This document shows, one piece after another, positions 8,233 to 38,449 of a DNA stretch of 64,000 bases. Position 1 is the stretch's first letter, and every line of letters starts with the position of its first letter. A program made the position numbers and the translations under genes. The stretch is from Pseudocercospora fijiensis CIRAD86 (taxonomy: Eukaryota > Ascomycota > Dothideomycetes > Mycosphaerellales > Mycosphaerellaceae): positions 10,059,894-10,123,893 of the forward strand of contig NW_006921532.1 of NCBI RefSeq assembly GCF_000340215.1, in the 5' to 3' direction. The notes under the pieces are model-generated. The model saw only the letters and a list, made by a program, of their open reading frames with translations, did not search any database and had not been told where the DNA came from.

Positions 8233-8455
8233 TTAAGGGCAGTAGCTAGATAGTCCTTATTTCAAGCTTTTAGCGGTATAGCTACGAAAACCGTTAATCT
8301 AACTATATTGCGCCTAAAGAACGGGACCTATACGTACTATTCTATTAAAACAACCGTACCAATTATTAAGTAAGGCCTTCTATACGGCCTATTATACTAA
8401 ATTAATCGCACTAAGCCGATATCTACTAATTCCGCTATATCCGTATCTTAGGGGC

Positions 8456-9800: not shown

Positions 9801-9929
9801 TAGTCGAAAAAAGAATAAGCGCAGCACTAACTATTAGCCTTGTGCAGCGTAAAACTATCGAAATTGTACTAGCTATTATACGCACCTGTCTTATATAGGA
9901 CACGTATAGAACTAACTATAAAACTAAGG

Positions 9930-11840: not shown

Positions 11841-12329
11841 TCAATTCTTTGTTTCTAACCCTATAGTATAAGATTGCTATAGCCCGTATTGTTAATAAGC
11901 AAGCGTAGGATAAGCGGCTTACCGGACTCCGCGACGGCTTAAAGCATATTAATGCTCTTACTATATTAATAGTGCGTATTAAGGCAAGGGCTAAGGATAT
12001 AGATAGGAGAAGTTATAATAACTCCCTAGTCGATATCGCTATATATAGTAACAGCGATTAAAGCACTGCTATAGTTAATCCGGCTGCTAGTGCTATTAGA
12101 TATATATAATACGTACCTCGTTCGATAGTACGGATGCTATTAAATAACCTTATAAATAGGGATAGTTAATCGTTTATAGATAAGCTATTACGTACTTAGT
12201 AGAGAGACGCCTTTGCTGCTAAACGTATTAATAAGCTTGTAAGTAGGCGAACGACTCGATCTAGTAAGAGTAATAATTAGTCGATCGACGACAAAGGTTA
12301 CTTAAAGTTTAAGGGCAGATACTATGTCC

Positions 12330-12958
12330 CCGCTAAACAATCGATTAGATAAGAGCTTTTAAAGAGGCACTATAATAGTAAGCTCGCTAGTTACTATAGT
12401 ATAGAGAGGTCGCACGAGTTACTATCGCGTATATACTACTAGCTAAATAGTAAGCGGTATATAAAGGAGTATATACAGACCTATGTAGTATACTAGCGAG
12501 TTAAAGCACTAAAGTACTTACTATTTAGCGAGTTGTCTTTACTCCCTGTTCTAAAGAAGCTATTTGCTAAGCTTATAATAGATTTTATTATAGGCCTTCC
12601 GCCTGCTAAGCGTAGGGGTAGTAAGGATATATTATATATATAATACTATCCTTGTTATAGTAGATCAATTTACTAAAGGCGCTCGATACATCCCGGCGCG
12701 CAAAGATTAGACTGCTATTAATATAGCAGAGGCGCTATAGACTAATATCTTCTATACCTATTAGGGAACCCCTAAGGGGATAGTATCCGATCGTAGATCG
12801 ATACTAATATCGTACTATTAGAGCGAAATATGCCTGCAGCTAAGACTAAAGCATCGGCTATTAACAGCCTTCTATCTATAGACTAACGGTTAAATAGAGA
12901 GGCAGAATGCTACCCTATAGTAGTACCTACGCAGCTATATTAATAAGAACCCTAAAGA
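12330..12958 (+). pseudogene. Gypsy-A1 integrase, truncated by deletion
   Basis: The integrase zinc-binding and core blocks are visible (YNSKLASYYSIERS at about 12370-12420, FIIGLPPAKRRGSKDI at about 12580-12635, then the degenerate SDRRS catalytic block near 12787). At about 12958 the sequence jumps from the integrase segment equivalent to 28735 of Gypsy-A2 to the noncoding segment equivalent to 29915. The integrase C-terminus and chromodomain are therefore absent. Confidence 0.85.
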
Positions 12959-17004: not shown

Positions 17005-17435
17005 GGTGACCGCAAGTAGGCGGCGGGTCGAGCAGCAACGAATGATGTGAGGATGAGAGAAAGTCACGAAGAATGCGCGAATGATAGTCAACGGACCATG
17101 GCGCTTGGGAATGCCAGGTGAAATGCGGTCTGGTTGATGAGTATTTGGAGGATATCGCCAGAGAGGGGAGAGGGAGAGAGGGAGAGGGAGCAGGCGGGCT
17201 CGGAAGACGGGAGCTTTGTGCTTGTCGCGTGTGAAACGGCCAGGGACCCACTTGCATACTGAAGACAGGTACGTACGGAAGGAAGGAACGCGGTTCTCTG
17301 TTCGCATGCCATGCCATCAATGCACTTGTGAACGTACCAAGCACGCCTGGCCTGGCCTGTCGTGTGTCTCGATCATTTTATACACAACGGGAGTGCGACG
17401 TCCTGCTGATGATCCGTTGCACACCTGCACTTCCC
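17005..17435. promoter_or_regulatory. rec8 upstream region with CT-rich tract
   Basis: This 431-bp spacer lies between the ubp6 stop and the rec8 start. On the rec8 strand, 17194-17158 is an almost pure pyrimidine tract (CTCCCTCTCCCTCTCTCC type), about 155 bp upstream of the ATG. CT tracts of this kind are common in fungal promoters. No coding region is supported. Confidence 0.55.
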
Positions 17436-19205: not shown

Positions 19206-20160
19206 ACTTGCTTGGCTGAGCCGCCGGGCCTATTGGTTGCGGGATTCGAGGTAGTCGTCGGGGATTCGACAGCTTGATGAAAGGAGCGGCGGTATTTGGG
19301 AGGCGTGGAAGTAAAGAGAAGCTTCGCATCGACCGTCAACAAATCCGGAAGTCGTCATGCAGGTCCGGCCGCGCTAACTGAATTGGGAGGCCTCAACATC
19401 AGCCTGTGGTTGTCGTCAATCTCAGACCTCCAACGCAGGTGCAGGGCCCGGGCCCTAGGAAGTGCGTTGTTAGCACCATCAAAAGCATGGCATCATACGC
19501 CAGATGAAGGAGTGCAAGCGCCAGAAGAATTGCTTGGCATGTCATGTGAAATATGCATCAACCTGTATAATGCTCAATGCTTACGAACCCAGGTCACATC
19601 ATCTGACTATTTAATATACTTTGATGGATTCTCGATCCTGTTCAATGCTTGTTATAGCGGCTGTGGATCTGAACCGAGATCTCATCAAGGATCCAAATGC
19701 TGGAGAAACATCGACACACTATGACAAAACAATGCAAGGTCGTTCGGAAATTGACGTTTTGCAGTTCTAACAATAGTCGCACCGTATCCATATCTCTATC
19801 AAAGCCGTAAGAGCACTTCACAACAGCTTTCTCGTCTCGCATAGGCGACTGTATACAGCTAGTGCGAGGTTAGAAAATATCTCACAGGTGCTGTTGTTCC
19901 TCTAACCCATCAGACTTGCCCAGATACTCGGCCTCCTTCCTACGCCTCTATCCTGCTCTCCATAATTGCGCTTGTTTAGCCAGGAAACATTGCTAGAGCT
20001 GTAATTGCGTCCTTGCTCGGCAATGAGCCTTTTGCGCTTGCTTGAATCCACTGCTTGTACTTCCCTGCCTTCTCCGCCCTGCCTCCTTCTTAGGCTGCAT
20101 CGCTTGTAAGCTCGTATGTGACTTCCTTTATCTTATCTCGGATCTCGGGCCTTCTTTACC
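19206..20160. other. Unique intergenic DNA upstream of ubp6
   Basis: Base composition is normal with plentiful CpA and TpG, so this is single-copy DNA. It holds the ubp6 promoter and 5' UTR. A plus-strand open frame at 19296-19724 (142 codons) overlaps the ubp6 upstream region, shows no recognisable motif and is probably not a gene. No tRNA or other RNA gene is visible. Confidence 0.6.
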
Positions 20161-23100
20161 CTGCGGAGGCGCTAGCAAACTAGCCTACGCGGCAGGTCTA
20201 ACTAGAGACTGTCTTCGCCTTAGTCCTTTACTATTTAAGTATCTCCTTATTATTTAATTAATAGGAATAATAAAGGCTTTTTAATTTTAACCTACTTAAT
20301 AGCGTTAAAAAGCTCTACTTTAAACTTATAACGACGGAGGGGTTAGGTCGATTTATAAGACTAGTTAGATTTATATCTAACTTCGATACGAATCTTAAAA
20401 GCGTAAAGGTCCCTAACGGAGCGAAGTTTAATTTTAGCCTTAGGAAGGAAGTTATAGTAGGTAGTAGGCTTACTAACGAAGACTTCTATATCTTTCTCTA
20501 GAGAAGTTCTAAGTTAAGGTCCCTTATTAGTAGACGAGTAGCCTAAGTTATATAGAGCGAGTATATCTTCTATTTTAGTACCTAATATAAATTATATAAT
20601 CTTAACTTCGATATATTATATTATAGCTTTACTACGGGTTATATTCTCGATCTATAATATACTAGCGATATTATCTATCTAATTAAAAAAAGCGACGTTT
20701 ATTTCGTATTAGAGACTCGAGTTAAGCTAACGAGGTATTAGTATAATACTATTAATATCTACTCGTTTAAAGATCGAGTATATTAACCTTATATACTTAA
20801 TAATAATTTATTACTTCTTAATATTAACGCGGCCTCTAATATCGTAGGCTAGTAAAGCATTTAGTTAGTAGATATACTAGCATTTCTAGAGCACAGCTTA
20901 ATAACTAATAGAGTCCTAGTATTTCGCGAAGATCGAAGCGCTTTTAGAGAGAACAGCCCCTAGTAAAATATACTAATAATATCTAACGAATAAGAAAATA
21001 CTAGGAAGTAGTAGTAGGTAAGCTAGAAAGTATCTAAGTTTTAACTCTTTCTTAGTTCCTAATAGGAGGCAAGTAATTCCGTTACTATACTACTAACACT
21101 AAAAGCTAGGCTTCCTACGGACGTCTAGACCTAGCCGCTTTTTATTACGAAAGCTTTACTAAAAAGGAAAGAGAGTATATAAACAGACAATCGCTAGATT
21201 TGCTTTAGTACGGCCCGTTAGTATATATTTATACTCGCTTTTACTTACCGAACTACGCCTATACTTAGAATCTTATTAAGTACTAAAATTGCTATCGATA
21301 TATTCTAAATACTACTAGCTCAATCTCGCCGTTTAAGACTATAATTAATAGTTAAGATTGTTACTCTTCTTTAAGGCTAATATTACTATTTCTGTCTCGA
21401 TCTAAGAAGGTTAGAAGAGGCGGAATTAGTAGTAGTCTTAGATTAAATCGTATATCTCTACTACTTAACCTTACCTATAATATTAAAGATCTACTCTATC
21501 TCTTCTCGTTCTAGCCCTAACACTTTCTATATATCCTACTTGTAGATCGTATTCCTTCTTAAAGAGTGTAGAAATGACTATAATCGCCTTATAAGAGCCT
21601 TTAATAATCTTTTATTCTTAAGCGCTTTTGTAACTACTAAGTATACGTAGGGTTATATACTTTTAGCCCTATTATATTAGGGAAATTATAAATATAGGGC
21701 GTCGGATTCTTATAAATAGGGTTTAGTCTTAGGCTAAGAAAGGCTTAGCGACTAATTTGTTAGTAAACGCCTACTAAATTGTCTATTTCTCTTTGTCTAT
21801 TTCTCTTTTTCTATAAGCGTATATCTATTACTAATTCGAATAACTAGTACTATTTTGCCTAAGTATCTAAGAAAAAAGCGTAAGACAAAAGAGGAGTACT
21901 CTACGAAGAAGAATTCCGTACGAGACCGCGAGAGAAAGTAGAAGATAGATAAGAATAAAAGATCGAAGGATAAGAGAAGAAAGGCTCGGAATAAGGTATT
22001 CTATCGATAGCTAGCGCCTATAGAAAAAAGTAAAGGTTAGAATAAGAAGATAACCTAAAAGAAGGCTAAGAGGAGGAAGGAATTACGTCTAGTTTTCGAG
22101 CGTAAGTTTCTAGTAGCGTAAGTTAATCTAGCCGATAGCCGTAGCTAGTAGCTATAGCTAGTAGCTATAGCCGGCAGCGATAGCCGGCAGCGATAGCCGG
22201 CAGCTATAGCCGGCATTTTTTTCTTTAAGACGTTAACTAATAGCATTTAGACCTATAGCCGCTACCTCTATCGATACGACCGATAGTAACGGAGATATTT
22301 AGATACCTAAGAATAATAATACTAGAGTTTAGAATGCCGCGAAACAGCTTAATACTACGAATAAAGGGACTAAAAAAAGCGAGGAGATACTTTACGTCGA
22401 TCTAGTAATAGGTATAGTCTTAGAGCCTAACGCTATAGACGATAAGCGCTAGGAGTAGATTGAGTATAGTTAAAGAGACGAGGTACTAGTAAAGGGCTAA
22501 GGCATAAGTCCTATTAATCTAGAAAATTATCGTTAAAGCTACTACGAAAAGCTAGTAAGGATTAGAATCGAGACTAGTCGTCTTTATATCCTCGATATAG
22601 AGTAGAAATTTCTTTATTAGTATTAGAGCGATGCCTTTGCGCCTATAAAGGCAAAGTAGCTTACGATTAATGCAATCGGGGCTAGGTATCTAGGGACGGC
22701 GGAAGAGTTACTAAAGGAGGAAGGGGTATAGGTAATTATTCTATACTCGGTATATATAGCCGGCGTTCGTAGCCGGCAGATACTAATAGTTAAATAGAAA
22801 GCGTTTCTCGAGGGTAGAATACTACTACTATATAAAATCTTTACTAAGGCAGAGAGGGCTTATATCCGGAATCTAAGCTACTAGTAGGATAGGTTAGCGT
22901 TAGAATTCTCTAAATCTCTATATAAGCCTCCGAAGGATTACCTATTTTAGCGATACGGCTTTATCTCGACTACTTTATAGATACCCGACGAAGCTCGAGC
23001 GCTCTTTAAGGTCTTTACTAAGAAGCGGAAGGAGTTCGAGGATTAGGATTAGTTAATAGAGCTATTAGTTAGTATTAGATTTCGTAGTTAGACTCGGCCT

Positions 23101-23439
23101 AAGTATTTGCTTATCGAGTATCTTATACCGAAAGAGGATAGATTAAGACTAAAAACGAGCTTAGATTCGTTAGGTATAGTAGCTCGGTTCCGTTAGTAGG
23201 AGAGAGCCGCCGTATAGAAGGCAAATTTTAGGTAGTTAGGATAGCTAGGGTAGCTAGGAAAAAAAGTCTAGTAGTTAGGCTAGCTAGGGTAGCTAGGAAA
23301 CAAAAAAAAGGTAGCTAGCTATTTACTACCTAGCTATTCCTAACGATACGATACTATAAAAGAAAGGGTGTTTCCCTATAGCTACTAGTATATATCTACT
23401 ACTCTTTACCTTACTATATAAAACTTTAAAACATGCCGA
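20161..23439. other. RIP-mutated repeat DNA, possible unassigned degenerate frames
   Basis: The change from unique to RIP-type composition is graded over about 20160-20260. A plus-strand frame at about 20410-20990 stays coherent with stops only at plausible Gln/Trp positions but matches no family I know. A Lys/Arg-rich plus-strand frame runs from about 21850 to 22110, followed by a segment shaped like an intron (about 22117-22250). This DNA may be the left part of the hAT-containing unit or an independent repeat. Confidence 0.45.
22117..22250 (+). repeat. TAGCCGGCAGC tandem motif in an intron-like segment
   Basis: A GTAAGT donor-like sequence near 22117 is followed by four tandem copies of TAGCCGGCAGC or close variants (about 22168-22215), a pyrimidine run, TTAACTAAT (branch-site-like) and CATTTAG (acceptor-like). 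The layout matches intron 1 of the H3-like pseudogene at 36692-36770. The host frame is unknown, so the intron call is an inference. Confidence 0.5.
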
Positions 23440-23884
23440 CCGACATTATATATATACTAGGCGCTATACTAGGAAGCGTAATAACGAGACGATAGTCGAA
23501 ATAGTCTACTATACGAACGAGATTGCGATAACGTCGAGAGGAGGTTATATACTCGCCTTCGAGCCTATCGAGTACTAGACGACGGTTAGGGCTAGATTTA
23601 TCCTCTCCTAATCCTAGTAGTAGGAATTTATTATAGGGTGCTACTACCTAGTCCTTACCTTTACGGAGTCTAAGTAGAAGGTTATTCGGAGATATAAGAA
23701 TATCGTATATTAACCCGGATATCTTTAAAAAGGCTAGCTAGGCGTATCTTTAGAAACCCGAGTATACCGAGTAGTTTAATTAATAGGTCTATAAGATATA
23801 GTTCCCTTTATACTTACGCTTAAAGTAGTATAAACTCTAAAAGTACTCGATACGATAGGGTAGTAAGGAGCGAACGGATATATT
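23440..23884 (+). pseudogene. hAT transposase N-terminal part, left of Gypsy-A2 insertion
   Basis: A plus-strand frame ends in the Lys/Arg/Tyr-rich stretch ERTDIF at the insertion point. It rejoins the right-hand part exactly when Gypsy-A2 and one copy of the ATATT duplication are removed (IFQKFFIERVLYRYTTSR with one RIP stop). The extent to the left is uncertain, and no BED zinc finger is visible. Confidence 0.55.
23880..23884. repeat. Target-site duplication ATATT (left) of Gypsy-A2
   Basis: ATATT precedes the 5' LTR and is repeated at 30942-30946 directly after the 3' LTR. Confidence 0.93.
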
Positions 23885-24081
23885 TGTTAGGGCTAAAGAG
23901 GCTATACGTAATTAGTATATAACTAGGCCGAGTAAAGCTAGGGTCTCGATGCCTTAGATAGGGCTTAGCGCTTAGTATTAGGCTAACTCTCCTACCTTCC
24001 TCCCTCTTCTCCTAGATTCTTATCGAATACTACTTGTACCTACTACTACCCTATCTACCTACTAATATAACCCCTATTATA
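23885..24081 (+). repeat. Gypsy-A2 5' LTR (197 bp)
   Basis: It begins TGTTAGGGC and ends CCCCTATTATA. It is a direct repeat of 30745-30941 and is followed by the same candidate primer binding site as Gypsy-A1. Confidence 0.95.
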
Positions 24082-24242
24082 TAGTATTCGATCTACCCTT
24101 TAAGGGTAGCAGCTAGATAGTCCTTATTTCAAGCTTTTAGCGGTATAGCTACGAAGACTATCGATTTAACTATATTACGCCCGAATAATAGGACCTATAC
24201 GTACTATTCTACTAAAAACAACCGCCGATACCTACTAATTCC

Positions 24243-25560
24243 GCTATATCCGCACTATAAGGGGCTACAATATATCGTTAGTACTATACCTTATTACAAT
24301 AGCCGGCTTATTACGAAATAACAACAATAATAACCGCGGCGCCGCTAGTAGCGCTAGTAATAATAATACTAGTAGTATAGAGCCTATTAAGGAACCTATA
24401 GTTCTAGGTAATAATCTAGAATTGCCTATTAACGATATTCTTAACAATATTGTTAATCGACGATATCGCTAGCTAGCCTTTAGGCCCTAACTAGTAGGGA
24501 GACTTTAAGAAGCTATTTAAAACAGGCTTACTGCCCTACGCTAAGAGTAGCAGCTAAAGGATAACCTCCTCGAGATTCGCCGCCTTTAGGAGTTCCTAAC
24601 AACTAATGCTAAACTAGTAGTAGGGCCTTCTTTACTGCCCGTCCCTATCTAAAAGAAGGATGCTAAACTTAAGGACTATACCGTGTTTAATAGCTCTAGT
24701 CGAAAGCAGTATAACGACTATATTCGTAACTATAAGCTTAACTAGCGTAATATACCGAGGGCCCTTCTAGACGACTATTTATTAGTTGTCTACGCTATAT
24801 AGTACATTAATAGCGACCTAAAACGCACCTAGGATAACTATTTCGACTCCCTTAATAATCAGACCGCTATTTAGTAGCAAACCTATAAAACCATTATGCT
24901 AGACACCCTTAGAAACCCTATACTAAGGCAACAACACGCCTAGGACTAGTACCTTCGAGCTAAACAAAAGACTAATTAATCGGCTCGCTTATTTAAGGCC
25001 TATTTAAAGACCCTCGAGGATAACCTTCCGGCTAAAACTAATTCTATATAGATCTCGGAAATACGCCTAAAGCTTAGGTAGGAGCTTATCCTTAAATTAG
25101 ACCGCCGCCGTATATTTAAATAGGCTAACCTAATACGTATTTAATTTATAGTCGAAGTAGAAACAGCTAAACGAGCTGTCTAGCTCTAGTAACGACTAGA
25201 ATCGAGGATCCGACTAGCTAGTACTAACCGTAGTAACCGTAGCCGCGGAGGAAACTAAGGTTCCTACTAGAACAATGATGCTAACAATAGGAACAGTAAT
25301 AACGACCGTAGAAGAGGCCGTAGCCGGCGGCTATATAGAGGAGGCTGCGATAGGGGCCGTAGAAGGGGCTCGTATCCCTATAGTACTAACCGCTCGGCTA
25401 ATAATAGTAGCAATAATAGCTACGGCAATCTCCTAACCGGATTAAAGTGCTTTAACTATAATAGTACTAGCTATCTACTAGGCTAATACGACAAACCTAA
25501 GGACTAGGCCCGAATTAATCGTACTTCCGCTAAGTATAGGAGATACCTCTCGGCCGCTAA
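24243..25560 (+). pseudogene. Gypsy-A2 gag remnant
   Basis: The architecture matches Gypsy-A1 gag: an Asn/Ser-rich N-terminus, a capsid region with LLDDYLLVVYAIQYIN at about 24762-24810, a basic RRGRSR/RGRR tract (about 25300-25375), and a knuckle at about 25447 (KCFNYNSTSYLLG) with Tyr at Cys/His positions. Expansions differ slightly from A1: the PAKVP repeats of A1 are missing here. Stops are RIP-type. Confidence 0.85.
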
Positions 25561-25714
25561 TACTACCCCTATAGGCCCTTCTAACTAGTCGAAAAAAGAG
25601 TAAGCGCCGCACTAACTATTAGCCTTGTACGGCGTAAGACTATCGACATTATACTAGCTATTATACGTACCCGTCTTATATAGGACACGCATAGAACTAA
25701 CTATAAGACTAAGG

Positions 25715-27610
25715 TTATGCTAGATCTAGGCAATTTAGTTAGCGCCCTTATTAACTACCGCCTAGCTAAGTAATTAGACCTTCGATAACTAAAGAGAACT
25801 AATATACTAACCCTTGCTTAGTTTAATAACGCTCGGCACTTAACCTATAAGGCTTACTATATTCCTATAGTTCTAAGAGACGACCTCGGCAATAAGCGCC
25901 TATTAGACTTTACTACCTACGTAGTAGATATAGACAACCTTCTATCCGATATTGTTATCGGCAACCCTATTCTTAAGCACTACGCTATAACTATAGATTT
26001 AGGCCTCTAATAGTAGCGATTTAGAATCGCTAGGAAAGAAGACATTAAGTATATTAATATTAGCGAGTGCCCTAACGATATTCGGGTCCTGTTTATTAGC
26101 AACCTAATACTAGCCTCCGCCTTAGCTAATCCGACTACTAACCTACTTAGCGGTAATAACGATAAACCTATACCCCCTAATAGTATAGACCCTAATTAGC
26201 TTGCTCGTATACTATAGCCTATTCGAGAAACCTATATTAATATATTTAAATACTACCTAGTATTAACATTGCCTATATTTAAAGAGACGGATTATAAGAT
26301 TAATATTATAGAGGGCAAAGAGGTCCCCTTTAGGCCCCTCTATAACCTTAGTAAACGAGAGCTTGCTATATTGCGTAAATATCTAGATAAGAATCTAGCT
26401 AATAGTCGAATCCGGTATAGTAACAGCCCTACTAGTGCACTAATCCTTTTCGTCCTAAAGAAGAATAGTAGCCTACGCCTATATATTAATTACCGTAGGC
26501 TTAACGCTGTTACTCTTAAGGACCGCTGCCTACTTCCGCTTATTAATAAGACCCTCGATCGCCTTTCTAGCGCCTATTTCTATACTATATTAGACATTAA
26601 GGATACGTACTATCGTATCTGTATTCGCAAAGGCGACGAATAGAAAACAGCCTTCCGTACTCGCTATAGCTATTTCGAGTATTTAGTTATGCTATTCGGC
26701 CTAGCTAATGCCCCTATAACATTCTAGTCCTATATTAATCGGGCCCTTTTAGGCCTATTAGACTACCTCTATATAGTTTACCTAGATAACATCCTAGTTT
26801 ATATATACTTACCTAATATTGCGGAGTACTAGGCTATAGTCCGTAAGGTACTTAACCGCCTGCGAGCCTATAGCCTATATTATAAGCCTTCTAAATGCAC
26901 CTTTGCTATAAAAGAGGTGTCCTTCCTCGGATTCCTCGTATTAACTAATAGTGTTAAGGCCGACCCTAATCGGGTTAAAACTATTACTAAATAGCTAACC
27001 CCTAGCAGCGTTAAAGAACTCTAATCGTTCCTAGGTTTTGCTAACTTTTACCGCCGCTTTATTAAGGGCTATTCGAGGCATGTAATGCTACTAACTGAAC
27101 TTACTAAGACTAAGGCAAACCCTTCTAGGGAGTTTAAATAGACTAATAAAACACAAGCCGCTTTTAACGGTCTAAAGCAACGCTTTACTAAAGTCCCTCT
27201 ATTATACTATTTTGTACTAAGCAAACAGATCCGAATAAAGACTAACGCTTTATAGTTCGCTATATTAGCTATTATGTTATAATAGGCTAATAATACCTAT
27301 TAGCACCCGATTGCCTTCTTTTTACAAAAGATAATCGATATAGAGCGTCGTTACGAGACCTATAAGTAAGAGCTCTTAGCAATCGTAGAAGCCTTTAAGT
27401 ATTAGCGCTACTATCTCGATAGTGCTTAGTACCCTATTTAGGTCTATATAGACTATAATAACCTACGTAGTATTACTAAGGTTATAAGGGTTATAGGTCG
27501 ATAGGCTAGATAGGCCGTCTACCTCGCTAGGTTCGATTTTAATATATTATACCGGCTAGGCGTAAGCAACCCTACCGATAGCCTATCGAGGCGACCTAAT
27601 TACGATAGCG
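25715..27610 (+). pseudogene. Gypsy-A2 protease, reverse transcriptase and RNase H
   Basis: The protease has DLGN at about 25723. RT is the best preserved in the window: 26269-26643 is open for 124 codons and reads FKETDYKINIIEGKEVPFRP, KRELAILRKYLDKNLANSR, LYINYRRLNAVTLKDRCLLP and FYTILDIKDTYYRICIRKGD. The Y-x-D-D equivalent is YLDNILVY at about 26776, with Asn at the second Asp (GAC to AAC, not a CpA change). RNase H extends to about 27600 and ends in LARFDFNILYRLGVSNPT. Its first stop after the open part is GAATAG, a mutated Trp or Gln codon. Confidence 0.92.
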
Positions 27611-28134
27611 AGACTTAGTATATTAATTCATTGTTTCTAACCCTATAGTATAAGATTGCTATAGCCTATATTATTAATAAGCAAGCGTAGGATAAGCGGA
27701 CTTCCGGACCCCGCGGCGGCAACAAATGCTATAGCGGAGTTGTCGTTCTTCTAGTATACGTTAGAAAGGACGTAGATCGCTTAAGCTATAATAACTCGAT
27801 TAAAGACATTGCTATCTATAGTAATAGCCTATATAGCGATAGTACTATAGAAGAGGTTGCAGTAGTTCCGGCTACTAGTACTATTAGATATATATAATAC
27901 GTACCTCGTTTAATAGCGAGGGTGCTATTAAATAACCTTACAAATAGGGATAGTTAATCGTTTATAGATAAGCTATTACGTACTTAGTAGAGGGACGCCT
28001 TTGCTATTAAACGTATTAATAAGCTCGTAAGTGGGCGAAAGACTCGATCTAGTAAGAGTAATAATTAGTCGATCGACGACAAAGGTTACTTAAAGTTTAA
28101 GAGTAGATACTATATCCCCGCTAAAAAATCGATT

Positions 28135-28900
28135 AGATAAGAGCTTTTAAATTGACACTATAATAGTAAGCTTGCTAGTTACTATAGCATAGAGAGGTCG
28201 TACGAGCTGCTATCGCGTATATACTACTAGCTAAATAGTAAACAGTATATAAAAGAATATATATAGGCCTACGTAGTATGCTAGCGTATTAAGGCACTAA
28301 AACACTTGCTATTTAGCGAGTTGTCTTTACTTCCTATTCCTAGGAAGCTATTCGTAGAGCTTATAATAGATTTTATTATAGGCCTTCCTCCTGCTAAGCG
28401 TAGGGGTAGCAAGGATATATATAATACTATCTTTATTATAGTAGATCGATTTACTAAAGGCGCTCGATATATCCCGGCGCGGAAGGATTAGACTGCTATT
28501 AATATAGCAGAAGCGCTATAGAATAATATCCTCTATACCTATTAGAGAACCCCTAAGGGGATAGTATCCGATCGTAGATCGACACTAATATCGTACTATT
28601 AGAGCGAAATATGCCTATAGCTAAGACTAAAGCATCGGCTATTAATAGCCTTCTACCTATAGACTAACGGTTAAATAGAGAGGCAGAATGCTACCTTATA
28701 GTAGTACCTACGCCGCTACATTAATAAGAACCCTAAAGACTAGGTTAACCTCCTATAGCCTATAGAATTCGTATATAACAATAGTATATACTTATTAACT
28801 AAGGCTTTACACTATATAGCTATAATGGGCTAAAACGCTGCCTTACCACAAGACCTATTTACCTCGCTCGAGGCCGAGCGTAAGGAAAGGGAAGCGCGTT
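28135..28900 (+). pseudogene. Gypsy-A2 integrase core
   Basis: The frame is open at 28306-28491 and includes LIIDFIIGLPPAKRRGSKDI and FIIVDRFTKGARYIPARKD, the first catalytic Asp block. The second catalytic block follows as IVSDRRSTLIS at about 28562, and a third region near ERQNATL at 28680 carries the glutamate area. The protein would insert element DNA into the host genome. It is interrupted by TAG/TAA elsewhere. Confidence 0.88.
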
Positions 28901-29309
28901 AAGTACTAGAGATACTAGCGGCAATAGAACGTATCTAGAAGATACGGGAAATCTATACTAAGATAGCTAAGAAGCTAATAAAGGCTTAAGAGTACTAAAA
29001 GACCTACTACGATAAGCGCTATACGCTAGTAACCTTTCAAGGCGATATAGTTATACTTAGTACGAAGAACCTCCGCATCCGTAAATACCTATTACCTAAT
29101 AGCAAAACAAGGCCTAAGCTCGCGCTAAGATATATTAGCCTATTCCGTATTCGAGAGGCTAAGGGTATATAGGCCTACTAGTTATAGCTTCCTCCTTATT
29201 ATACTATCTATAATACCTTCTATATGTCCCTTCTTAAGCTATACTACTAGCGCGAAGGCGATAAAGCGCCTACTAAGTTAGAGGAAGTCCTAGCTAATAG
29301 TAAAGAGCT

Positions 29310-29450
29310 ATAGTCGGTCGAACGAATACTAAAGCATTAGACTAGACAAGGCAAGAAGGAGTACCTACTAAGATAGTAAGGCTATTCGCCTAAATAGGAC
29401 TTCTAGGAAGCTAAAGGCTCCTTCGAGGATATAACTAAGTTGTTAGATAA
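29310..29450 (+). pseudogene. Gypsy-A2 C-terminal chromodomain
   Basis: The frame reads SVERILKH, GKKEYLLR, QGYSPK and EAKGSFEDITKLLDKY. This is the chromodomain fold, with the two conserved Trp codons now TAG. In chromoviruses this module binds methylated histone H3 and steers integration to heterochromatin, which agrees with the heavy nesting here. Confidence 0.82.
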
Positions 29451-29479
29451 GTATTAGACTAGTATAAAGAACAAGAAGA

Positions 29480-30730
29480 AGGCTAAGGGCCTATAATGTC
29501 GCTAGAAGTCGCTAAAGAGACCTAGGATTAATGCTACCCCCGGGGTGCTATTAGCTAGCTAATTAGAGGCAAGCAATTGTTAGTAAAGGATAACGAAGCT
29601 ATACTACGATAGCGAACGCGCACCGAGTACTAATAAGCGCGCTATAACGCGTTAATTAATCGCCTACTCTTTTAAGAGCTCTACCTCTTTACTAATGCGC
29701 CCTATAAGGCCCTCCTCTTAGTATTTAGGTCCCCCTCTTATTCCTTTATCCTATCGAGGCCTAGGCGGTCGGCGAGGACGGCGCGCGCGCGAATAGTAAT
29801 AATAATAATAACGACGGCGTCGCGCTTACGCTAGAGGACGGCGCGGCTATATTAGTAATAGTAGTACTAAGTGTGTTACTAGTTAAAGGAGGAAATAAAG
29901 AACAAGGTAAAGTTAGAGCTAAGACGGCTAGCGCCGCTATTATTAACGTTACCTACCTACTACTATTATTAACCTTACTTGCTATCGTTACTATACCTAT
30001 AAGAACAACCTTACCTATACCGCGGTCTAAGGCCAGAATGTACTATACTAACTAAGCTAAAAAAGATTGAGCTATTCGAGGGGCTCGAGGCTTAAAAGAT
30101 TAAGCAATTAATAGACTAACTAAGGGCAAAAATATAGAGCTAAGCTAGCCGGGGTCGATCTTACGGATAATAGATTACTCCTCGATCTTTCCGACCCTTT
30201 AAGCGAGGCGAACCTTAACTATTGCACTTATAATAGCCTTTACCTATAGAAACTAGACAAACTGTGTTTTTAAAAAGATAAGATTAATTAACAATTAAAG
30301 GCTACTAAACCTAACTAATTAGGGCTAGCGAAACTACGAACAATAATAGCCCTCGTAATAATAAGAACAATCCCTCGGAAGCGGACATTTCTAGGTCTTT
30401 TAGAGTAGACGTAAAGAACTCGGATAATATTACTTAGAACGGAGGCAATGCTACAATACCTCGTACGTCTACCTATTATAGTAGGGAAGACGCGCTCGTA
30501 TTGTAATTAGTCGATAGTCCTTAATTTCGTAGTTATATATTACTTTATTATATATAAGGATAGCGCAGTTAGAGTTAGACATTAGATTAGAAGGTAAGGT
30601 TTAATATAGTTATATAATTAGGTAGTTAAGTGTTTAATTTAGCGCGGCTAAGCAGCTTGTTAGATTTGCTAAGTTAGTAGTAATAGAGGTCGAGATTGGA
30701 ATGTAGAAAGGCTACGAGGGCGCGGCCTTT
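29480..30730 (+). other. Gypsy-A2 3' noncoding region
   Basis: About 1.25 kb lies between pol and the polypurine tract. A short open frame at 29873-30055 has no recognisable domain and is probably chance. The region from about 29915 is shared with Gypsy-A1. A GCGCGCGCGC run occurs near 29785. Confidence 0.6.
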
Positions 30731-30744
30731 AGAAGGGAAGCGTA

Positions 30745-30941
30745 TATTAGGGCTAAAGAGGCTATATATAATTAGTATATAACTAGGCCGAGTGAAGCTA
30801 GGGTCTCGATGCCTTAGGTAGGGCTTAGCGCTTAGTATTAGGCTAACTCTTCTACCTTCCTCCCTCTCCTTCTAGATCCTTATCGAATACTACTTATACC
30901 TACTACTACCCTATCTACCTGCTAATATAACCCCTATTACA
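30745..30941 (+). repeat. Gypsy-A2 3' LTR (197 bp)
   Basis: It begins TATTAGGGC after the AGAAGGGAAGCG polypurine tract and ends CCCCTATTACA. The target duplication ATATT follows. Confidence 0.95.
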
Positions 30942-33560
30942 ATATTCTAGAAGTTCTTTATAGAGAGAGTATTATACCGTTATACGACTTCTCGACTTAA
31001 AGGTTAACTAGTAATTGTCTATAACTTCTACGGTTTAATCTTAAAATACCCGAAACTAGGGGATAGGAACTTATCGCCTACTAACTATCTCTATTCTAAA
31101 CGGTATCGGGAATCTTAAGGAGAGAGGAGGGTTAATATAGATATAGCGTTCTAGAAAGAGGTACGTCTTCTAAAATACTAGCTATAGCTACCGGCTATTA
31201 TAGGCTATAGCTACCGGCTATAGCTGCCGGCTATAGCTGCCGGCTACTTTAATTAAGCGTAGAGATCTAGCTAATTATTATAGGCTACGCTTAAGGAAGC
31301 TCTAGGATTAAAGGCTACCGATTTCTCCCCCGAAGACTTTAAGTAACTAGTAAACGAAATACTAGCTATAAACAGTCTTTCGGAAGACTTCTACGAAAGG
31401 GAGTCTATATAGAAGATATACCTATATCTTATAAACTGCCCTTCCCTATTTCTCGGCGCGACAACCTAGCGTATTATATTCGAAAAGAATAAAGAGGCTA
31501 CGTTAGACGATATTCGGGAGATCCTCCGTAATACTCGCCGAGTAGCTATTACTATCGATAGCTAGTTAAGCCGGACTATAAGAGCCTCCTTCCTCTCGAT
31601 TATACTATACTTTATTAATTTAGATTAGAAACTCTAGGAACTTATAATCGAATTCCCTAAAATTCTAGGTTCCTATACTAGTAAGGATATAGCGAAGCTT
31701 ATCTATACGGCAATAGATAGGGTTAGCGTAATAACGAAACTAATCTCGATTACTACGGATAACGCTAGTAATAATCGAATATTATATAAGACGTTATATA
31801 TACAATTTACTCGTATATATCTTTAAAATTACTAATTGTATCGATAGGGTCGAGTACGTAGAGGAGATTATAAGGTCTATAATCTAGCTTAATCTTCCGA
31901 ATATTAAGATCGCTACGATTCCGGATACGTACAATAATACCTACGATAATAACGATAAAGAGGAGCCTAGTAATAGCCCTAGCCCTATTAAATCGGAGCC
32001 GACGTCGTTACTAGTTATATCCCTATAGAAGTTTCCCTACCTCGCTTATATAGTTTAAATCGCGATCCGAGCCCTCTTTAAAACGCTTAAAATTGCACTA
32101 TTAAACGATAACTAATAGAAGATCCTAGATAAGGATAAAGCAAAGTCGAAAGTCGAGAAACTCGTTATAGTAATAAGACGGGATAAGGTAGAGAGCCTCG
32201 CTCTCGTTTTATATAAGGTATAACTTTTATCTGTAGCCGGTACCTATAGCTAGTAACCTAGTATAGTTCTAACTCTTTTTCTCTAGCTTCGTTGTCTAGT
32301 AATATATACGAACTCGAGCTTATAGAAATATAACCGATTCGAGGCTATTTAAAAGAACCTAATCGAGCGCCCTAAAACCGATACCTAGAATATCGTATAG
32401 AATAAGCGATAGCAAAAGCGGCCTCCTTAGCGCCTACTCCGTTTTACCTAAGACGTTAAGACCTAGTTCGATTCGACTTTCTATATAGTTACGAGAGGAT
32501 ATACTTTACGTACCGCTCTCGAGATCTATTAGAGTTCCGAAGGTATTAAGTAGCTCGGGCTTACTACCGCCGAATAGCGCTAAGTAGAGTATCTCGTTAA
32601 TATTAGCAAGTATTACGCGAAGGTTACTACTACGATTAGAAGAACCCGAGGACCGACGATCTACCTTATCTTTATATACTATAACTAGCTCTTTAACGAG
32701 CTCGACGAAACCGTAGCTAAGCTAGCTAAGAAGAGCGTTCCCTAGAAAGTAGCTATAACGAAAGCTATAGATACCTCCTATACTAAGTTATATAAATATT
32801 ATAGTGCTACCTTTTAGTCGTTCGAGGATATCTATAGCGTTACGTACTTACTTAACCCGGTAGAAAAGGATATATACTAGTAGAAGCTAGAATAGAAGAG
32901 GGACGAGGAATAGTCTAAGTATTACTAGACTATTCTAGAAAGGATATTCTACGAGCGTCGAAAAGAAACTAGTCTAAATGTAGCTTCTATAAAGAAAAAG
33001 AAGGTTTAGAAGGCTCCGATATTATACCTATTTCGTAGGTAGGAAGTAGAGGCAGAAGAGGAAGCAACTACTAAAGTAAATAAAGAAGAGTTCGATCTCT
33101 ATTAGCGCGCGAGTAAAGACTAAACCTATAGGCTCGGAAAGAGGGCTAATAATCTCTAGATCTTACCGGTCTTCTAGACGAATTCGGAGACGATATTCTC
33201 GCTATATAGTAGCGGTTAGAGCCTAAGTTTCTAACGATAGCGTCGGTCGCTCGGGACGTCCTCGCTATACTAAGCGTAGGTATAGGCTATAAGAGGTCTT
33301 CTAGTATCGCTCGTTACTAGGGCCGCTTTAATCGAATATACTCGCCTACTACCTTCGAATCTATTATAGTATTCTAATACTATCTCCTCTACTAGAGTCG
33401 CTAAGGTAGGATACTAAAGATTATACTAAAGGACTTAATCGAGGAATTAGAAAACCTTAAGATCGAAGAAACCTAGGAGCGCGAAGAGAATACGAAATTT
33501 AGTCTAAGCGAAACCCTAATTAGCGATAACGAAGAGGAGGAAGGCGGAAATAGAAGGCGA
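30942..33560 (+). pseudogene. hAT-family DNA transposase, right part, RIP-mutated
   Basis: A plus-strand frame carries the hAT core. RVAITIDS at about 31537-31560 holds the first catalytic Asp region; FLSIILYFINLDQKLQELII follows, and ISITTDNASNN at about 31746-31775 is the diagnostic hAT block. At about 32650 comes GPTIYLIFIYY, then YLLNPVEKDIY near 32850. At 33225-33390 comes the C-terminal hATC dimerisation domain (FLTIASVARDVLAILSVGIGY, then SPTTFESI). Stops occur where Gln/Trp are expected. The transposase would cut and paste its own element using terminal inverted repeats, which I did not locate. A cluster of GCCGGC motifs at 31183-31245 interrupts the frame and may be an intron. Confidence 0.85.
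31183..31245 (-). repeat. TAGCCGGCAGC-type motif cluster within hAT
   Basis: Four copies of a GCTATAGCTGCCGGC-like unit lie in tandem, the inverted orientation of the motif at 22168-22215. A GTACGT upstream and TTAATTAAG downstream could be splice sites, but the branch site is weak. Confidence 0.6.
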
Positions 33561-34076
33561 TACTAGGTCGAGAAGCGGAAACGTATATAGGCTTAGAGTA
33601 GCTTTAAGGAGACGAAGCGTTTACTTAGAAGGTAATATAGCCGTTATATATAGCTAGTATATATCTTTAATATATTTCGAATTCTTAGGACCTAAATAGA
33701 CTAGTTACTATAGCAACCTACCCCGCTTATCTACGGACTATTTCTAATTCTCTATTTGCTTTTCCTCTCCTTCTTCCCTTTCCCTATATTCTTAAAGATA
33801 AATATACCTTAAGGATTCGGCTCTTCGGGCCTTCCTAAGCCGGCCGCCTCTCCTTCCTTAAGCTACTATCCTTTATACGAATCTAACGATAACCTACTAG
33901 GACGGTTTAATAGAAGACTATTTAATCTAGAAGGCAAGAAGTATAAATGTCTCCTTACGATTATAGGCTTATTAATTTTCTAGGTCCTACCGATATACCC
34001 TCGTCGCCTAAACGCGTATAGGAATATCTTTAGAGCCTAAAGGGCAAGGGTAAAGTAAGCTAAGTATAGGGAGACC
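33561..34076. other. Mutated spacer between hAT and the first H3-like pseudogene
   Basis: No gene is recognised. The region has long pyrimidine-rich stretches (about 33740-33790) that could be the promoter or leader of the H3-like sequence that follows. Confidence 0.45.
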
Positions 34077-34605
34077 GTAGCGAGAACGAAATATCGGAAG
34101 AGTAAGACTGTCTATAGTATATACGAAGGAAGGGGGTTCCTCGGAAAATAGTACTAAAAAACAAGAAGGCTTTAGGTAGATAGAAGAAGGCTAAAAAGAG
34201 TAGGCAAACGAAGGCTATCGCGAAGAAAAGTTATCTTTCTATTAAAAAAAAGGGTATAAGGTAGTACTCGACGATAAAGAAGCGGCGCTTTAAACTAAAT
34301 ACTATTGCCCTTCGCTAGATCCGGCTTTTCTAAAACAAAAGAGGGACCGAGCTTTTAATCCCTAAGACTCTCTTCTAGCGACTCGTCCGAGAAATTATAT
34401 TAGATTTTCGGTCTAGTATACAATTTACGGCTAAGGCGATTAGTACTTTTTAGAAAGCTACGGAGGCATTTCTCGTAACCGAGCTTAAGCTTTTAAACCT
34501 CCTTACTATCTATACGAAGCGGGTTCCTCTTTAAAATAAAGATATATAGCTTCTAGCTAAAATTCGGCGTCGGTTTATAGCGGATTAGTTAGAAATTGTA
34601 TTTAG
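34077..34605 (+). pseudogene. Histone H3-like pseudogene 1, RIP-mutated
   Basis: From about 34124 one plus-strand frame gives a Lys/Arg-rich tail (KGVPRKIVLKNKKALG, then KKAKKSRQTKAIAKKS) and then a full histone-fold region. NTIALRQIRLFQ corresponds to GTVALREIRRYQ of H3, TELLIPKTLFQRLVREI to STELLIRKLPFQRLVREI, and ATEAFLV to ASEAYLV. LLTIYTKRVPLQNKDIQLLA corresponds to [20 protein letters not shown]. Four of the interrupting stops fall on Gln positions of H3. ARTK, the H3 N-terminus, is readable at 34080 in another frame, so an indel or lost intron may lie between. The spacing between helices 1 and 2 is that of canonical H3, not the longer loop of CenH3. It is nonfunctional. It is probably an H3 variant that was multicopy, since RIP acts on duplicated DNA. 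Confidence 0.88.
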
Positions 34606-34986
34606 TCGTTAGATTAACCTAGGAGGAGGCCTATTTTCGTATCCTTTTGCCGGCTATAGGTACCGGCTATATTTCTAATTTTATCTCCGCGCTATCCCTA
34701 AATCTAAGGTACGAAGTAGAAACCTAGCGCTCTATATTTACCCGGCTATTATAGAGACGAGCTATATTTAGATTAGTTTCTTCGTATATCGCGACCTAGC
34801 GGGTAGTAAGCGAAAGGGCGAGAGAACGTTTATAATACGTCTCTATTTAGACCTAAAATATAAAGGTCCTAAGGAGCCCTAGTATCCTAACTATAAGGAG
34901 ATTCTTTAGTATTAGTACTTTAATCCTCTATACTACGAGGCAGATAGTAAGCCTACGAGAGAGAAACTTTAACGAGAGATTCTCTA
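34606..34986. other. Mutated DNA after H3-like pseudogene 1
   Basis: It includes a GCCGGC motif pair in the reverse orientation at about 34648-34675 (TTTGCCGGCTATAGGTACCG). No gene is recognised. Confidence 0.45.
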
Positions 34987-35716
34987 TAATATATAGCGCT
35001 ATTATATAGCGATAGATACGTACTAAGTCCGGCAACTCGAAGAAGAATTAAGATAGCGTATTAGCGACTAAGGAAGAGATCGATAGTATACTAGTAGAGT
35101 CGAGGTCTTATAAGCGAAGTACGAGATAATATAGGCTCCTAGTTATTTAGAGTAACGTACTATATAAATAACTAGGCGTGCTACTCTTATTTACTTACAA
35201 CCTATATCCTAGGATACTCTTCTCGTACTTTTTATACTCTTTTCTAATACCTTACCTATAAGCGCTCCGCGACAATCGAGTAAATATAAGCTATAGGATT
35301 TCCGCTCGGTACTTTAGCCTTCGAGATACGACGGAGTTAAATCTAGAGGTATACTATAATACGTAGCGCTATTATATAGCTATAGATACGTACTAAGTCC
35401 GGTAACTTAAAGAAGAATTAAGACAGCAACCGAGGAGGAGATCGATAGTATACTAGTAAAGTCGAGGTCTTATAAGCGAAGTATAAGATAATATAGGCTC
35501 TTAGTCGTATAGAGTAACGTACTATATAAATAACTAGGCGTGCTACTCTTATTTACTTACGACCTATATCCTAGGATGCTCTTCTCGTACTTTTTATATA
35601 CTTTTCTAATACCTTACCTATAATCGCTCCGCGATAACCGAGTAAATATAAGCTATAGGATTTCCGCTCGGTACTTTAGCCTCCGAGATAGGGCGGAGTT
35701 GAATTTAGAGCGATAG
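34987..35716. repeat. Tandem duplication, two ~364-bp copies
   Basis: 34987-35350 and about 35355-35716 are direct repeats sharing long blocks, for example GCGCTATTATATAGC, GATACGTACTAAGTCCGG and GGATTTCCGCTCGGTACTTT. They differ by scattered C/T and G/A changes and by a small deletion in the second copy (the GCGTATTAGCGAC segment). Neither copy encodes anything I recognise. Confidence 0.9.
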
Positions 35717-35740
35717 CCGGCACTCGTAGCCGGCATATAG
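35706..35740 (+). repeat. TAGCCGGCA motif pair
   Basis: GATAGCCGGCACTCGTAGCCGGCATATAG lies at the end of the second duplicated copy. It is one of at least nine places with this motif in 22.1-38.2 kb. Confidence 0.7.
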
Positions 35741-35790
35741 AGACGGTAGTAGGCCTTTTCCTACTAAATAACTAGCTTGTTTAGTATAGC

Positions 35791-35979
35791 TGTAAGCAGG
35801 GTTATGTAAGCGGGTAGATAGGGTAGTAGTAGGTTAGTATAGTATTCGATAGAGATCTAGGAGGAGAAGGAGGAAGGCAGGCTAGTTAGCCTAACGCTAA
35901 GCGCTAAGCCCTGCCTAAGGCACTAAGACCCTAGCTTTACTCGAGCTAGTTATATGCTAATTACGTATAGCCTCTAACA
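35791..35979 (-). repeat. Solo LTR of Gypsy-B family (189 bp) with ATAGC duplication
   Basis: It matches the Gypsy-B LTR in reverse orientation, starting TGTAAGCAGG and ending CCTCTAACA. ATAGC occurs at 35786-35790 and again at 35980-35984. This is the usual trace of LTR-LTR recombination. Its TG and CA ends are intact, so it is less mutated than the Gypsy-B 3' LTR. Confidence 0.95.
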
Positions 35980-35984
35980 ATAGC

Positions 35985-36423
35985 CTACCTAATATTTCTT
36001 ATATTTCCTAGTAATAGGCCTAGGTTACTTATAAGATTACTATAGCTAGTAAGGGAATTACTAAAGAATATCTATACTATAGTAGGATACTATTATTACG
36101 CCGACTATTTATTAAAAGGAGGCTTTTGCCTATTGCTGTACCGGCTAGATATACTAGCTATATTTTAAAGTTTGCCGTATCTGCCTTTTTTAGCCGTACT
36201 TGCCTTCTTTCCTTACTCTAACGTTACTATAATATAGGCTTGCGCGACGCTTACTCTATTGCCTAGCGATACCGCGATACTACCTCTCTCGCTATATTTA
36301 ACCTTCGTAGCGATACCTATATCTCTACGCTCTATATCTACTAACTCCGTAATACCCTCGCTCCGCGCGCGCCTTCGTATACCTTCGTAACGCACTTTTT
36401 TCCTTAATTCGACGACTTTTATA
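35985..36423. other. Upstream region of H3-like pseudogene 2
   Basis: RIP-type DNA. A minus-strand open frame at 36213-36395 (60 codons) has no recognisable motif. The pyrimidine-rich patches near 36180-36220 may be promoter remnants of the H3-like gene. Confidence 0.4.
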
Positions 36424-37110
36424 ATACCGAGTCTACTTAACTAAGTTACGACGCCTCGTAAGAAGGAACCTACTACTTCTACGGGTTGTAATAAGACCGG
36501 AAATAGTAGAACGAGTATAGTATATTAACGTAAGAAGGCTACTACTACTACCGCTAGCTCTAGTACTAGAAAGGGCGTCGCGAGTAAGGCTCCGCGTAAG
36601 ACGACGGCGGGTAAGGCTCTATATAAGACGACGACTAACGCTTCTACTACTAGTAGTAATAATCGTACGAAGCGTCGATAGCGCCTAGGAAGTAAGTCCT
36701 ATCTATAGCCGGTAGCGTAGCCGGTAGCGTAGCCGGCATTCTTACTATCTTTTTACTAATCCTTCTTTAGCCGTAGCCCTTCGTTAGATTCGGATATATT
36801 AGAAGGACGCTAGACTCCTAATCCGTAAAGCTCCTTTCTAACGACTTGTTCGCGAAATTGCCTAGTATATTACACGAGACTATCGCTTCTAAGCCTCCGT
36901 AATAGACGCCCTTTAAGAGGCTTTAGAAGCCTATCTAGTTCGTATCTTTAGATATATATTTCTCTTCTACCTCTTTTCGAACTATACTAATACTATTTTA
37001 GCGGTTAACCTTACAGCTATCTACGTAAAGCGTATTACGATTACAGATAAGGATTTTAAAGCCTTCGATTAGATTCTTAAAGGCTAGAATATCTATATTC
37101 GAGATAGTAC
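36424..37110 (+). pseudogene. Histone H3-like pseudogene 2 with two introns, RIP-mutated
   Basis: Exon 1 (36424-36691) starts at ATA, probably a mutated ATG, and encodes a long tail of about 89 residues rich in Lys, Thr and Ser, with STRKGVASKAPRKTTAGKA resembling the H3 tail motif KAPRK. Removing intron 1 (36692-36770, GTAAGT to CTTTAG, branch TACTAAT) joins RLG to TVALRQIRIYQ, the exact H3 junction sequence, with CTA for an ancestral CCA proline. Exon 2 (36771-36953) gives LLIRKAPF-RLVREIA and ASVIDAL-EALEAYLVRIF. Intron 2 (36954-37001) has lost its donor G by TpG to TpA. Exon 3 gives NLTAIYVKRITITDKDFKAF. The stops up to the end of exon 2 are TAG/TAA at Gln positions of H3 or in the tail. 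The helix 1-loop 1-helix 2 length is canonical, so it is not an obvious CenH3. Confidence 0.9.
36692..36770 (+). other. Intron 1 of H3-like pseudogene 2, carrying TAGCCGG repeats
   Basis: This 79-bp intron contains three tandem TAGCCGGTAGCG or TAGCCGGCA units at about 36706-36740, a pyrimidine run, TACTAAT and an AG acceptor. Splicing is inferred from restoration of the H3 protein; it is the clearest case where the recurrent motif is intronic. Confidence 0.8.
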
Positions 37111-37121
37111 TAGATAGGATA

Positions 37122-37182
37122 GATATTCTAGTAGGAAGGATGTTCTAGTAGGAAGGATATTCTAGTAGGAAGGATGTTCTTA
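37122..37182. repeat. 17-bp tandem repeat after H3-like pseudogene 2
   Basis: There are 3.5 copies of GATATTCTAGTAGGAAG. Copies alternate between GATATT and GATGTT, which is a TpG/TpA difference. Confidence 0.9.
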
Positions 37183-38323
37183 GTATTATTTATAAGCGTT
37201 TCTATATACGAAATAAGCCGCTATTATACGGCGCTATATACCGCGCTCTAAATACTCTCTAAGTATATATATATAGTATAGTATACTTTATTAGCCGTAC
37301 GGAATAGCAGTCTTCGAAAATCCCGTTAGTACTAAGGAGTAAAAAGGCCGGCTACGCTGCTAGGTCTTTTAAAGAACTGAAAGAAGATAGACATTCTAGC
37401 CAATTTGCACCAGATTGGATTTTTATAAAGAGAAAATAGGGAAAAAGGAGGAAGGTTAAAGAACCTAATACTTATAGCTAGAGGCATTATCCCCATTTTC
37501 TAGACTATATTACACACCTGCCTTCGTAACTCTACCTAATACTCCCTCTAAATATCCTTATACTTTACCTACTAGAAATTCAACTAGGTACCTAGACCTA
37601 TAGCTGCCTCTATATCTTTTACTATCTTCTATAGGTTAAAGGACTCCTCTATAGTAGCCTCTACCTCCTTATATAATACGGAGTTACTACCTGCCCTACC
37701 CTTTATATCTACTAAATAACTTAGAGTTCTAAGAAACGAGCCAGCATTCGGCCTTAGTATAGCGAGTAACTAGTAGAACGTAGTATAGAGCTGCTTTGTA
37801 GCTCTTTTATATACTATACTAATACCGAGGGAGGAGCTATCCTAGTACTTAATATTAGAGAATAGTTTAGTAAAAAAGTATTAGAACTTCTTAAGAAGGG
37901 CTTCTAGGGAAATCGATAAGTTCTACCTAGATCTAGATAAGGCTATTCTACTAAGCAGTTAGGGAATTAAATAGCGAGCTAAAGGATGAAATTTATACCT
38001 AATAAGTATAGTTTCTAAACTAAACTATAATAGCTTATATATGTATATACTTTTAATTAGTTAGTGCCCTTAGCTAATTGTCTATAGATTTAGGATTATA
38101 CAAGTACCTTCCTATAACTAAAAAATGCCGGCTACGCTGCCGGCTATACTCTCGTATCTTATAAAGGGCTTGCTTCGAGTTACGTATCTATTCTTATACT
38201 TCTTAGAAACCGATAAATTCTATAGTTCGAACCTACTACTCCTATAGTTGCTTAGCAAACCAACCTAAACTAGACTAGATCTTCGGCTTAGTAAACTAAA
38301 CTAAACTAACCTAAACTACTATA
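37183..38323. other. Unassigned degenerate DNA with weak minus-strand frame
   Basis: A minus-strand frame at about 37860-37490 is coherent (KQLYTTFY, LLAILRPNAGSFLRTLSYLV, then VEATIEESFNLQKIVKDIEA) with RIP-type stops, but I do not recognise the protein. TAGCCGGCA motifs occur at about 37345 and 38127-38152. A patch at about 37385-37435 keeps several CpA and TpG and looks less mutated. CTAAA-type short repeats lie near 38290. Confidence 0.45.
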
Positions 38324-38449
38324 GGGTCTAGGGCTTAGCGCTTAGCGTTAGCCTAATTTCCTTACCTTCCTCTCCCTCCTTTATAGACCTTATCGAATAC
38401 TATACGCTCTTAACTATACTATCTACCTACTTACCTAATCTATATTATA
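38324..38449 (+). repeat. Truncated Gypsy-B-type LTR
   Basis: The 3' two thirds of the 189-bp LTR are present (GGGCTTAGCGCTTAGCGTTA through TCTATATTATA), with a small internal loss just before. The 5' part is missing. The following DNA does not match the element interior. Confidence 0.8.

What the first reader, a model, noticed from the sequence alone, without database searches (positions are those of the whole stretch)
36424..37110. Spliced histone H3-like pseudogene with a long divergent tail inside RIP-mutated repeat DNA
Seen: removing two introns restores the H3 fold in order (TVALRQIRIYQ, LLIRKAPF, RLVREIA, EAYLVRIF, NLTAIYVKRITI), and the stops up to the end of exon 2 lie at Gln codons or in the tail. 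The N-terminal tail is about 89 residues, more than twice that of H3, yet keeps KAPRK. Known: RIP hits duplicated sequences. Inference: this was a multicopy H3 variant, possibly cargo of a mobile element, or a duplicated histone gene destroyed by RIP.
Basis: partly seen in the sequence, partly recalled or inferred. Interest (0 to 1): 0.88.

Follow-up and report, generated by a model that had tools for sequence, protein, structure and literature searches.

The report
Transposon-borne histone H3 gene, RIP-killed
This is one dead copy of a histone gene that a jumping gene spread through a fungal genome; the element is already published, but its copies hint that the histone was a working, spliced and changing protein rather than a passive passenger.

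Summary
In detail: window 36424 to about 37089 is a RIP-mutated H3 gene with three exons, two introns and an 89-codon tail. It is multicopy (150 scored of 772 candidates) and sits in a hAT-type element (9.5-9.9 kb, matching termini, exact 8-bp TSDs in 3 of 3 full copies). This family is published for Pseudocercospora fijiensis (Dhillon 2019, PMC6710886), very likely this genome, so the finding as given is known. Three points go beyond or against that paper. (1) The two H3 genes per element, H3-A and H3-B, are distant (50 of 82 fold residues identical). (2) The paper's '16-aa insertion' is a 48-nt intron, its GT donor kept in 13 of 54 copies; with intron 1, H3-B is no intronless retrocopy. (3) In RIP-blind purine/pyrimidine coding, H3-B exon 2 varies more at codon positions 1/2 (21 of 119) than flanks (49 of 1071) or third positions (9 of 170), mainly at H3 residues 53-62 and 77-80. 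This fits recent diversifying selection on an element-encoded H3 before RIP killed it; between deeper groups only constraint is seen. What the protein did is inference.

The parts
21853..23884 (+). left piece of the hAT element (element positions about 652-2686); the first ~650 bp were not found in the window
   Evidence: blastn of three full copies against the window; search for the first 700 bp
23885..30941 (+). LTR retrotransposon nested in the element (193-bp repeats at both ends 94.8% alike, ATATT on both sides; RVT_1, RNase H, integrase zinc finger, sub-threshold chromodomain)
30942..35790 (+). middle piece of the hAT element
31760..33070 (+). presumed transposase coding stretch (approximate, projected from copy L012)
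   Evidence: codon-periodic purine/pyrimidine change 10, 30, 14 (p 0.002); Dimer_Tnp_hAT at 18.1 bits, below its cut-off, in L010; no Pfam match in L012
33995..34588 (+). H3-A: second, distant H3-like gene of the same element, no intron seen; fold from about 34304
35791..35979 (.). 189-bp insertion absent from other copies
35980..38330 (+). right piece of the hAT element, ending in the terminal repeat
36424..36691 (+). H3-B exon 1, 89-codon tail with KAPRK
36692..36770 (+). H3-B intron 1, within one codon of a host H3 intron and in the same phase
36771..36953 (+). H3-B exon 2 (alpha N to mid alpha 2)
36954..37001 (+). H3-B intron 2, 48 nt, donor lost in this copy
37002..37089 (+). H3-B exon 3 (rest of alpha 2, alpha 3); end approximate
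38311..38330 (.). right terminal inverted repeat

Best explanation
The locus is one RIP-inactivated, retrotransposon-interrupted copy of the published H3-carrying hAT transposon family. Shown: the elements examined carry two distant H3-like genes, and H3-B has two introns. Inferred: while the element was active, H3-B was transcribed, spliced and translated into an H3 variant with a doubled tail; selection kept its histone core and, in recent lineages, changed the alpha N/alpha 1 junction and loop 1. Least certain (about 0.35 on its own): the variant entered nucleosomes with host H4 on or near the element, and its changing surfaces reflect a contest with host chaperones or silencing. RIP then broke every copy examined.
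For: Element termini, TSDs and flanks. Both H3 genes in 20 of 20 fetched loci and the window. Introns: GTAAGT donor of intron 1 in 10 of 10 copies displayed; GT donor of intron 2 in 13 of 54; splicing restores H3 spacing. Purine/pyrimidine variation in 13 flanked copies: exon 2 positions 1/2 21 of 119 against flanks 49 of 1071 (Fisher 1.1e-6) and all third positions 9 of 170 (7.5e-4). Each of five divergent copies against the common type: 12, 12, 12, 9, 9 of 119 at exon 2 positions 1/2 against 34/1192, 15/706, 11/597, 15/608, 6/676 downstream (sites are shared between copies, so these are not independent tests). Single-copy changes, mostly post-insertion, are about even between introns (11 of 127) and exon 2 (15 of 178). 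Exon 3: informative sites 0, 0, 3 by codon position.
Against: Between groups I and II exon 2 shows 6, 5, 7 by codon position and the tail 9, 10, 4, with all exons (0.087-0.147) below spacer DNA (0.200 and 0.245): overall constraint, no excess. Codon position alone is weak: 3 of 21 at position 3, p 0.046; 1 of 14, p 0.027. Exon 2 was singled out after a first look. Copies are not a random sample. No expression or protein evidence was available.
Confidence: 0.7

Rival explanations
1. Passive passenger: the hAT element captured an H3 transcript by chance, it hitch-hiked with no use of the protein, and the divergence is drift and RIP decay (close to the published reading).
For: Every copy aligned is broken; the published capture account (PMC6710886); between groups I and II codon-position bias in H3-B exon 2 is absent.
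Against: H3-B has introns, so it is not a spliced transcript as it stands. Exons and H3-A change less than spacer DNA, H3 spacing is kept, and exon 2 positions 1/2 exceed the flank rate in recent lineages, which drift does not predict.
Confidence: 0.2
2. The exon 2 pattern comes from recombination: element copies exchanged exon 2 tracts with a more diverged H3-B lineage, giving clusters of changes without diversifying selection.
For: Changes in adjacent bases at residues 53, 58, 77, 78 and 80; a similar loop 1 reading in group I copy L063 and group II copy L022.
Against: Transferred DNA should bring third-position changes; the five divergent copies show 0, 1, 1, 1, 2 of 59.
Confidence: 0.1

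Closest known systems
H3-carrying hAT family of Pseudocercospora fijiensis (Dhillon et al. 2019, PMC6710886)
   Same: Element length, 20-bp TIR, 8-bp TSD, RIP, hundreds of copies, two H3-like copies in full-length elements, intact host H3 on scaffold/contig 6. The genome here is unnamed; identity is inferred.
   Different: Here the two H3 genes are read as distant lineages, the 16-aa insertion as an intron, and H3-B as intron-bearing; the paper reports absence of introns and transcript capture.
H3L-carrying hAT element of Pyrenophora tritici-repentis (Manning et al. 2013, PMC3538342, passages seen)
   Same: hAT transposon with an H3-like gene between its TIRs.
   Different: About 5.6 and 2.3 kb, 26 near-identical copies, ESTs present; Dhillon reports no DNA similarity between the elements. 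Its protein was not compared here.
CenH3 / CENP-A
   Same: Long divergent tail and change at loop 1 (adaptive change there is recalled, not from a call).
   Different: Loop 1 of H3-A and H3-B has canonical H3 length; both fall outside the host CENP-A and Bimuria pair.

Membership tests
hAT DNA transposon | 8-bp target site duplication and terminal inverted repeats | tested here: met
   3 of 3 full copies; in the window the left end is missing, so its own TSD could not be tested
hAT DNA transposon | hAT transposase domains | tested here: inconclusive
   Dimer_Tnp_hAT 18.1 bits (cut-off 21.4) in one frame of L010; none in L012 or its left end. Genome-wide PF04937 and PF05699 matches were not mapped to the elements. 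The paper reports DUF659 in 277 of 471.
Histone H3 | H3 fold with tail and canonical spacing | tested here: met
CenH3 / CENP-A | longer loop 1 and grouping with known CENP-A | tested here: not met
   alignment and tree of 21 rows
RIP-mutated repeat | CpA/TpG depletion with TpA excess in duplicated DNA | tested here: met
   copies
Processed retrocopy of host H3 (published account) | no introns | tested here: not met
   H3-B. For H3-A no intron was seen, so for it the account stands.

The most novel reading that the evidence does not exclude
A DNA transposon encoded two histone H3 variants as working parts. One (H3-A) stayed conserved; the other (H3-B) came under recent diversifying selection at the alpha N/alpha 1 junction and loop 1, next to the chaperone-read start of alpha 2, as in an arms race over which nucleosomes or chaperones the element could use.
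Probability: 0.4. Interest if true: 0.85.

Novelty: already known. Interest (0 to 1): 0.5.

Why it matters
The element family is in print, so the finding as given is not new. Manning et al. 2013 asked whether genes captured by such transposons are under selection and why (passage). RIP makes only transitions, so purine/pyrimidine changes give a RIP-blind record of selection in hundreds of dead copies, which makes that question testable now. If the excess at loop 1 is confirmed, a mobile element evolved its own histones, and the retrocopy account of H3-B needs correcting.

Tried and rejected
CenH3 origin was considered because of the long tails and rejected on loop 1 length and the tree. A translated 16-aa insertion was rejected: it would put a mostly hydrophobic stretch in the middle of alpha 2, while splicing restores H3 spacing. 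Introns as a neutral yardstick were rejected: they are pyrimidine-rich, so purine/pyrimidine coding understates their change (1 of 126 sites between groups); flanks and third positions were used. Counting amino-acid readings as a measure of change was dropped: stretch 64-75 has 13 readings among 44 group I copies although it holds no informative purine/pyrimidine site, because RIP transitions also change residues. Protein searches for intact relatives (lists capped at 120) were swamped by ordinary H3; metagenome protein P0121 shares H3-A traits and pairs with H3-A at 87/89. Genome-wide PF04937 and PF05699 searches gave 21 and 47 matches that I did not map onto the H3 elements. One search gave no Pfam family for three pieces of the window, one with the fold in a wrong frame. 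One search failed on a file name; one search repeated it.

Full report
Observation. The window holds an H3 gene in three exons on the + strand, 36424 to about 37089. Exon 1 has an 89-codon tail that keeps KAPRK. Intron 1 splits the codon matching Thr45; intron 2 (48 nt) lies in the middle of alpha 2. Joining the exons gives canonical H3 spacing.

Copy number and carrier. A PF00125 search of the window's own genome (73.9 Mb, 30 contigs) gave 150 scored matches of 772 candidates; two rows lack internal stops, and these are the host H3 (C6) and a CENP-A-like host gene (C5). I fetched 20 ten-kb loci from the upper part of that list; 20 of 20 match the window's element. Three copies extended to full length are 9531, 9938 and 9517 bp, with TAGACCCC termini and exact 8-bp duplications. 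In the window the element lies in three pieces, interrupted by an LTR retrotransposon and a 189-bp insertion; its first ~650 bp were not found.

Prior work. Dhillon et al. 2019 (PMC6710886; I read parts 1-4 of 7 of the text and the Methods) describe this family in P. fijiensis: 784 H3-like sequences, 471 elements, a full-length set of 133 at 9.5-9.9 kb, 20-bp TIR, 8-bp TSD, original H3 on scaffold 6. The genome here is unnamed; size, the intact H3 on C6 and the element's features make it very likely the same species, which is inference. Manning et al. 2013 (PMC3538342; passages) describe an H3-like gene in a hAT element of P. tritici-repentis. Four paper searches listed no other title or abstract that I recognised as reporting introns in, or selection on, these histones; only listings were seen, and the held library is partial.

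Two H3 lineages. All 20 fetched loci and the window carry both H3-A and H3-B; the further copies were fetched for H3-B only. H3-A and H3-B of L009 share 50 of 82 comparable fold residues; H3-B shares 56 of 85 and H3-A 50 of 86 with host H3. A tree of 21 rows (5 of 54 H3-B copies, 3 of 21 H3-A copies, host H3, host CENP-A, 11 fetched proteins) puts each lineage in one clade (100/97 and 98/93), outside the CENP-A pair; H3-A pairs with metagenome protein P0121 (87/89). Eight forks are open, and P0121 is a long row.

Introns. The paper's 16-aa insertion corresponds to intron 2. It has a TACTAATAC branch site and TTTTAG acceptor in the window; a GT donor stands in 13 of 54 copies and is lost in the rest, the window among them. 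Intron 1 has GTAAGT in 10 of 10 copies displayed. Host H3 has an intron one codon away in the same phase. So H3-B is not an intronless retrocopy; a genomic capture that kept a host intron, with intron 2 gained later, is the simpler inference. H3-A shows no intron and could come from a transcript.

Selection. RIP makes only transitions, so bases were coded as purine or pyrimidine. The 54 H3-B copies are not a random sample: the window, 20 loci, 18 of the 40 scored candidates and 15. They form group I (44) and group II (10). Within group I, sites where at least two copies differ number 21 of 178 in exon 2 (11, 7, 3 by codon position), 7 of 270 in the tail, 1 of 127 in introns, 3 of 68 in exon 3 (0, 0, 3) and 2 of 53 in short flanks; single-copy sites are 15 of 178, 15 of 270, 11 of 127 and 7 of 68 in the first four. 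In 13 copies with flanks (5 divergent, 8 common), variable sites are 21 of 119 at exon 2 positions 1/2, 4 of 59 at exon 2 position 3, 9 of 170 over all third positions, 12 of 178 at tail positions 1/2 and 49 of 1071 in flanks; Fisher 1.1e-6 against flanks, 7.5e-4 against all third positions, 0.037 against exon 2 third positions alone. The group I informative sites at positions 1/2 fall at residues 50, 53, 58, 59, 62, 77-80, 89, 96, 99 and 104; none lies in 63-76. That loop 1 (about 77-82) meets DNA and that residues near 87-90 are read by H3 chaperones is recalled.

Results against. Between groups I and II (17 and 3 copies) exon 2 gives 6, 5, 7 by codon position, and all exons (0.087-0.147) lie below spacer DNA (0.200, 0.245). 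So the long-term pattern is constraint, and the diversification is confined to recent lineages. Codon position alone is weakly significant. Exon 2 was singled out after a first look. Amino-acid readings are unsafe: the core 64-75 has 13 readings in 44 copies, loop 76-83 and patch 86-90 have 10 each, so only purine/pyrimidine sites carry the argument.

Controls inside the element. H3-A fold differs at 10 of 281 sites between groups (4, 1, 5), its tail at 18 of 273, the DNA just downstream at 12 of 56. The presumed transposase stretch shows 10, 30, 14 by codon position (p 0.002) at a rate of 0.044, so the element was under protein-level constraint when active. Its hAT domain match is below cut-off, so the hAT name rests on termini, TSDs and the paper.

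Mechanism. Shown: carrier, copies, introns, two lineages, RIP, pattern of change. Inferred: expression, nucleosome entry, and why DNA- and chaperone-facing surfaces changed.

Noticed in passing
window 8018-12958 and 23885-28739: Two copies of the same LTR retrotransposon, 83.7% alike; the second is nested in the H3 element and shows reverse transcriptase, RNase H, integrase zinc finger and a sub-threshold chromodomain.
   Followed up: partly
L032 (G000:C5:605600-607800): An intact CENP-A-like host gene with a longer loop 1 and one intron.
   Followed up: partly
window 34984-35348 and 35354-35710: Tandem duplication of about 365 bp (89.6% alike) between H3-A and H3-B in this copy.
   Followed up: no
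window 36704-36750: GCCGGC-rich short repeats inside H3-B intron 1, also scattered in the element's noncoding parts.
   Followed up: no
window 15001-20000: GC-rich island (50-56% GC) without RIP signs amid AT-rich repeats.
   Followed up: no
window 36954-37001: Intron 2 is a multiple of three and stop-free when read in frame, so an unspliced message would stay open there.
   Followed up: no
protein P0121 (metagenome, 164 aa): Open H3-like protein sharing LLIPK, the NLLAI region and an AK-RRRF end with H3-A; its carrier is unknown.
   Followed up: partly
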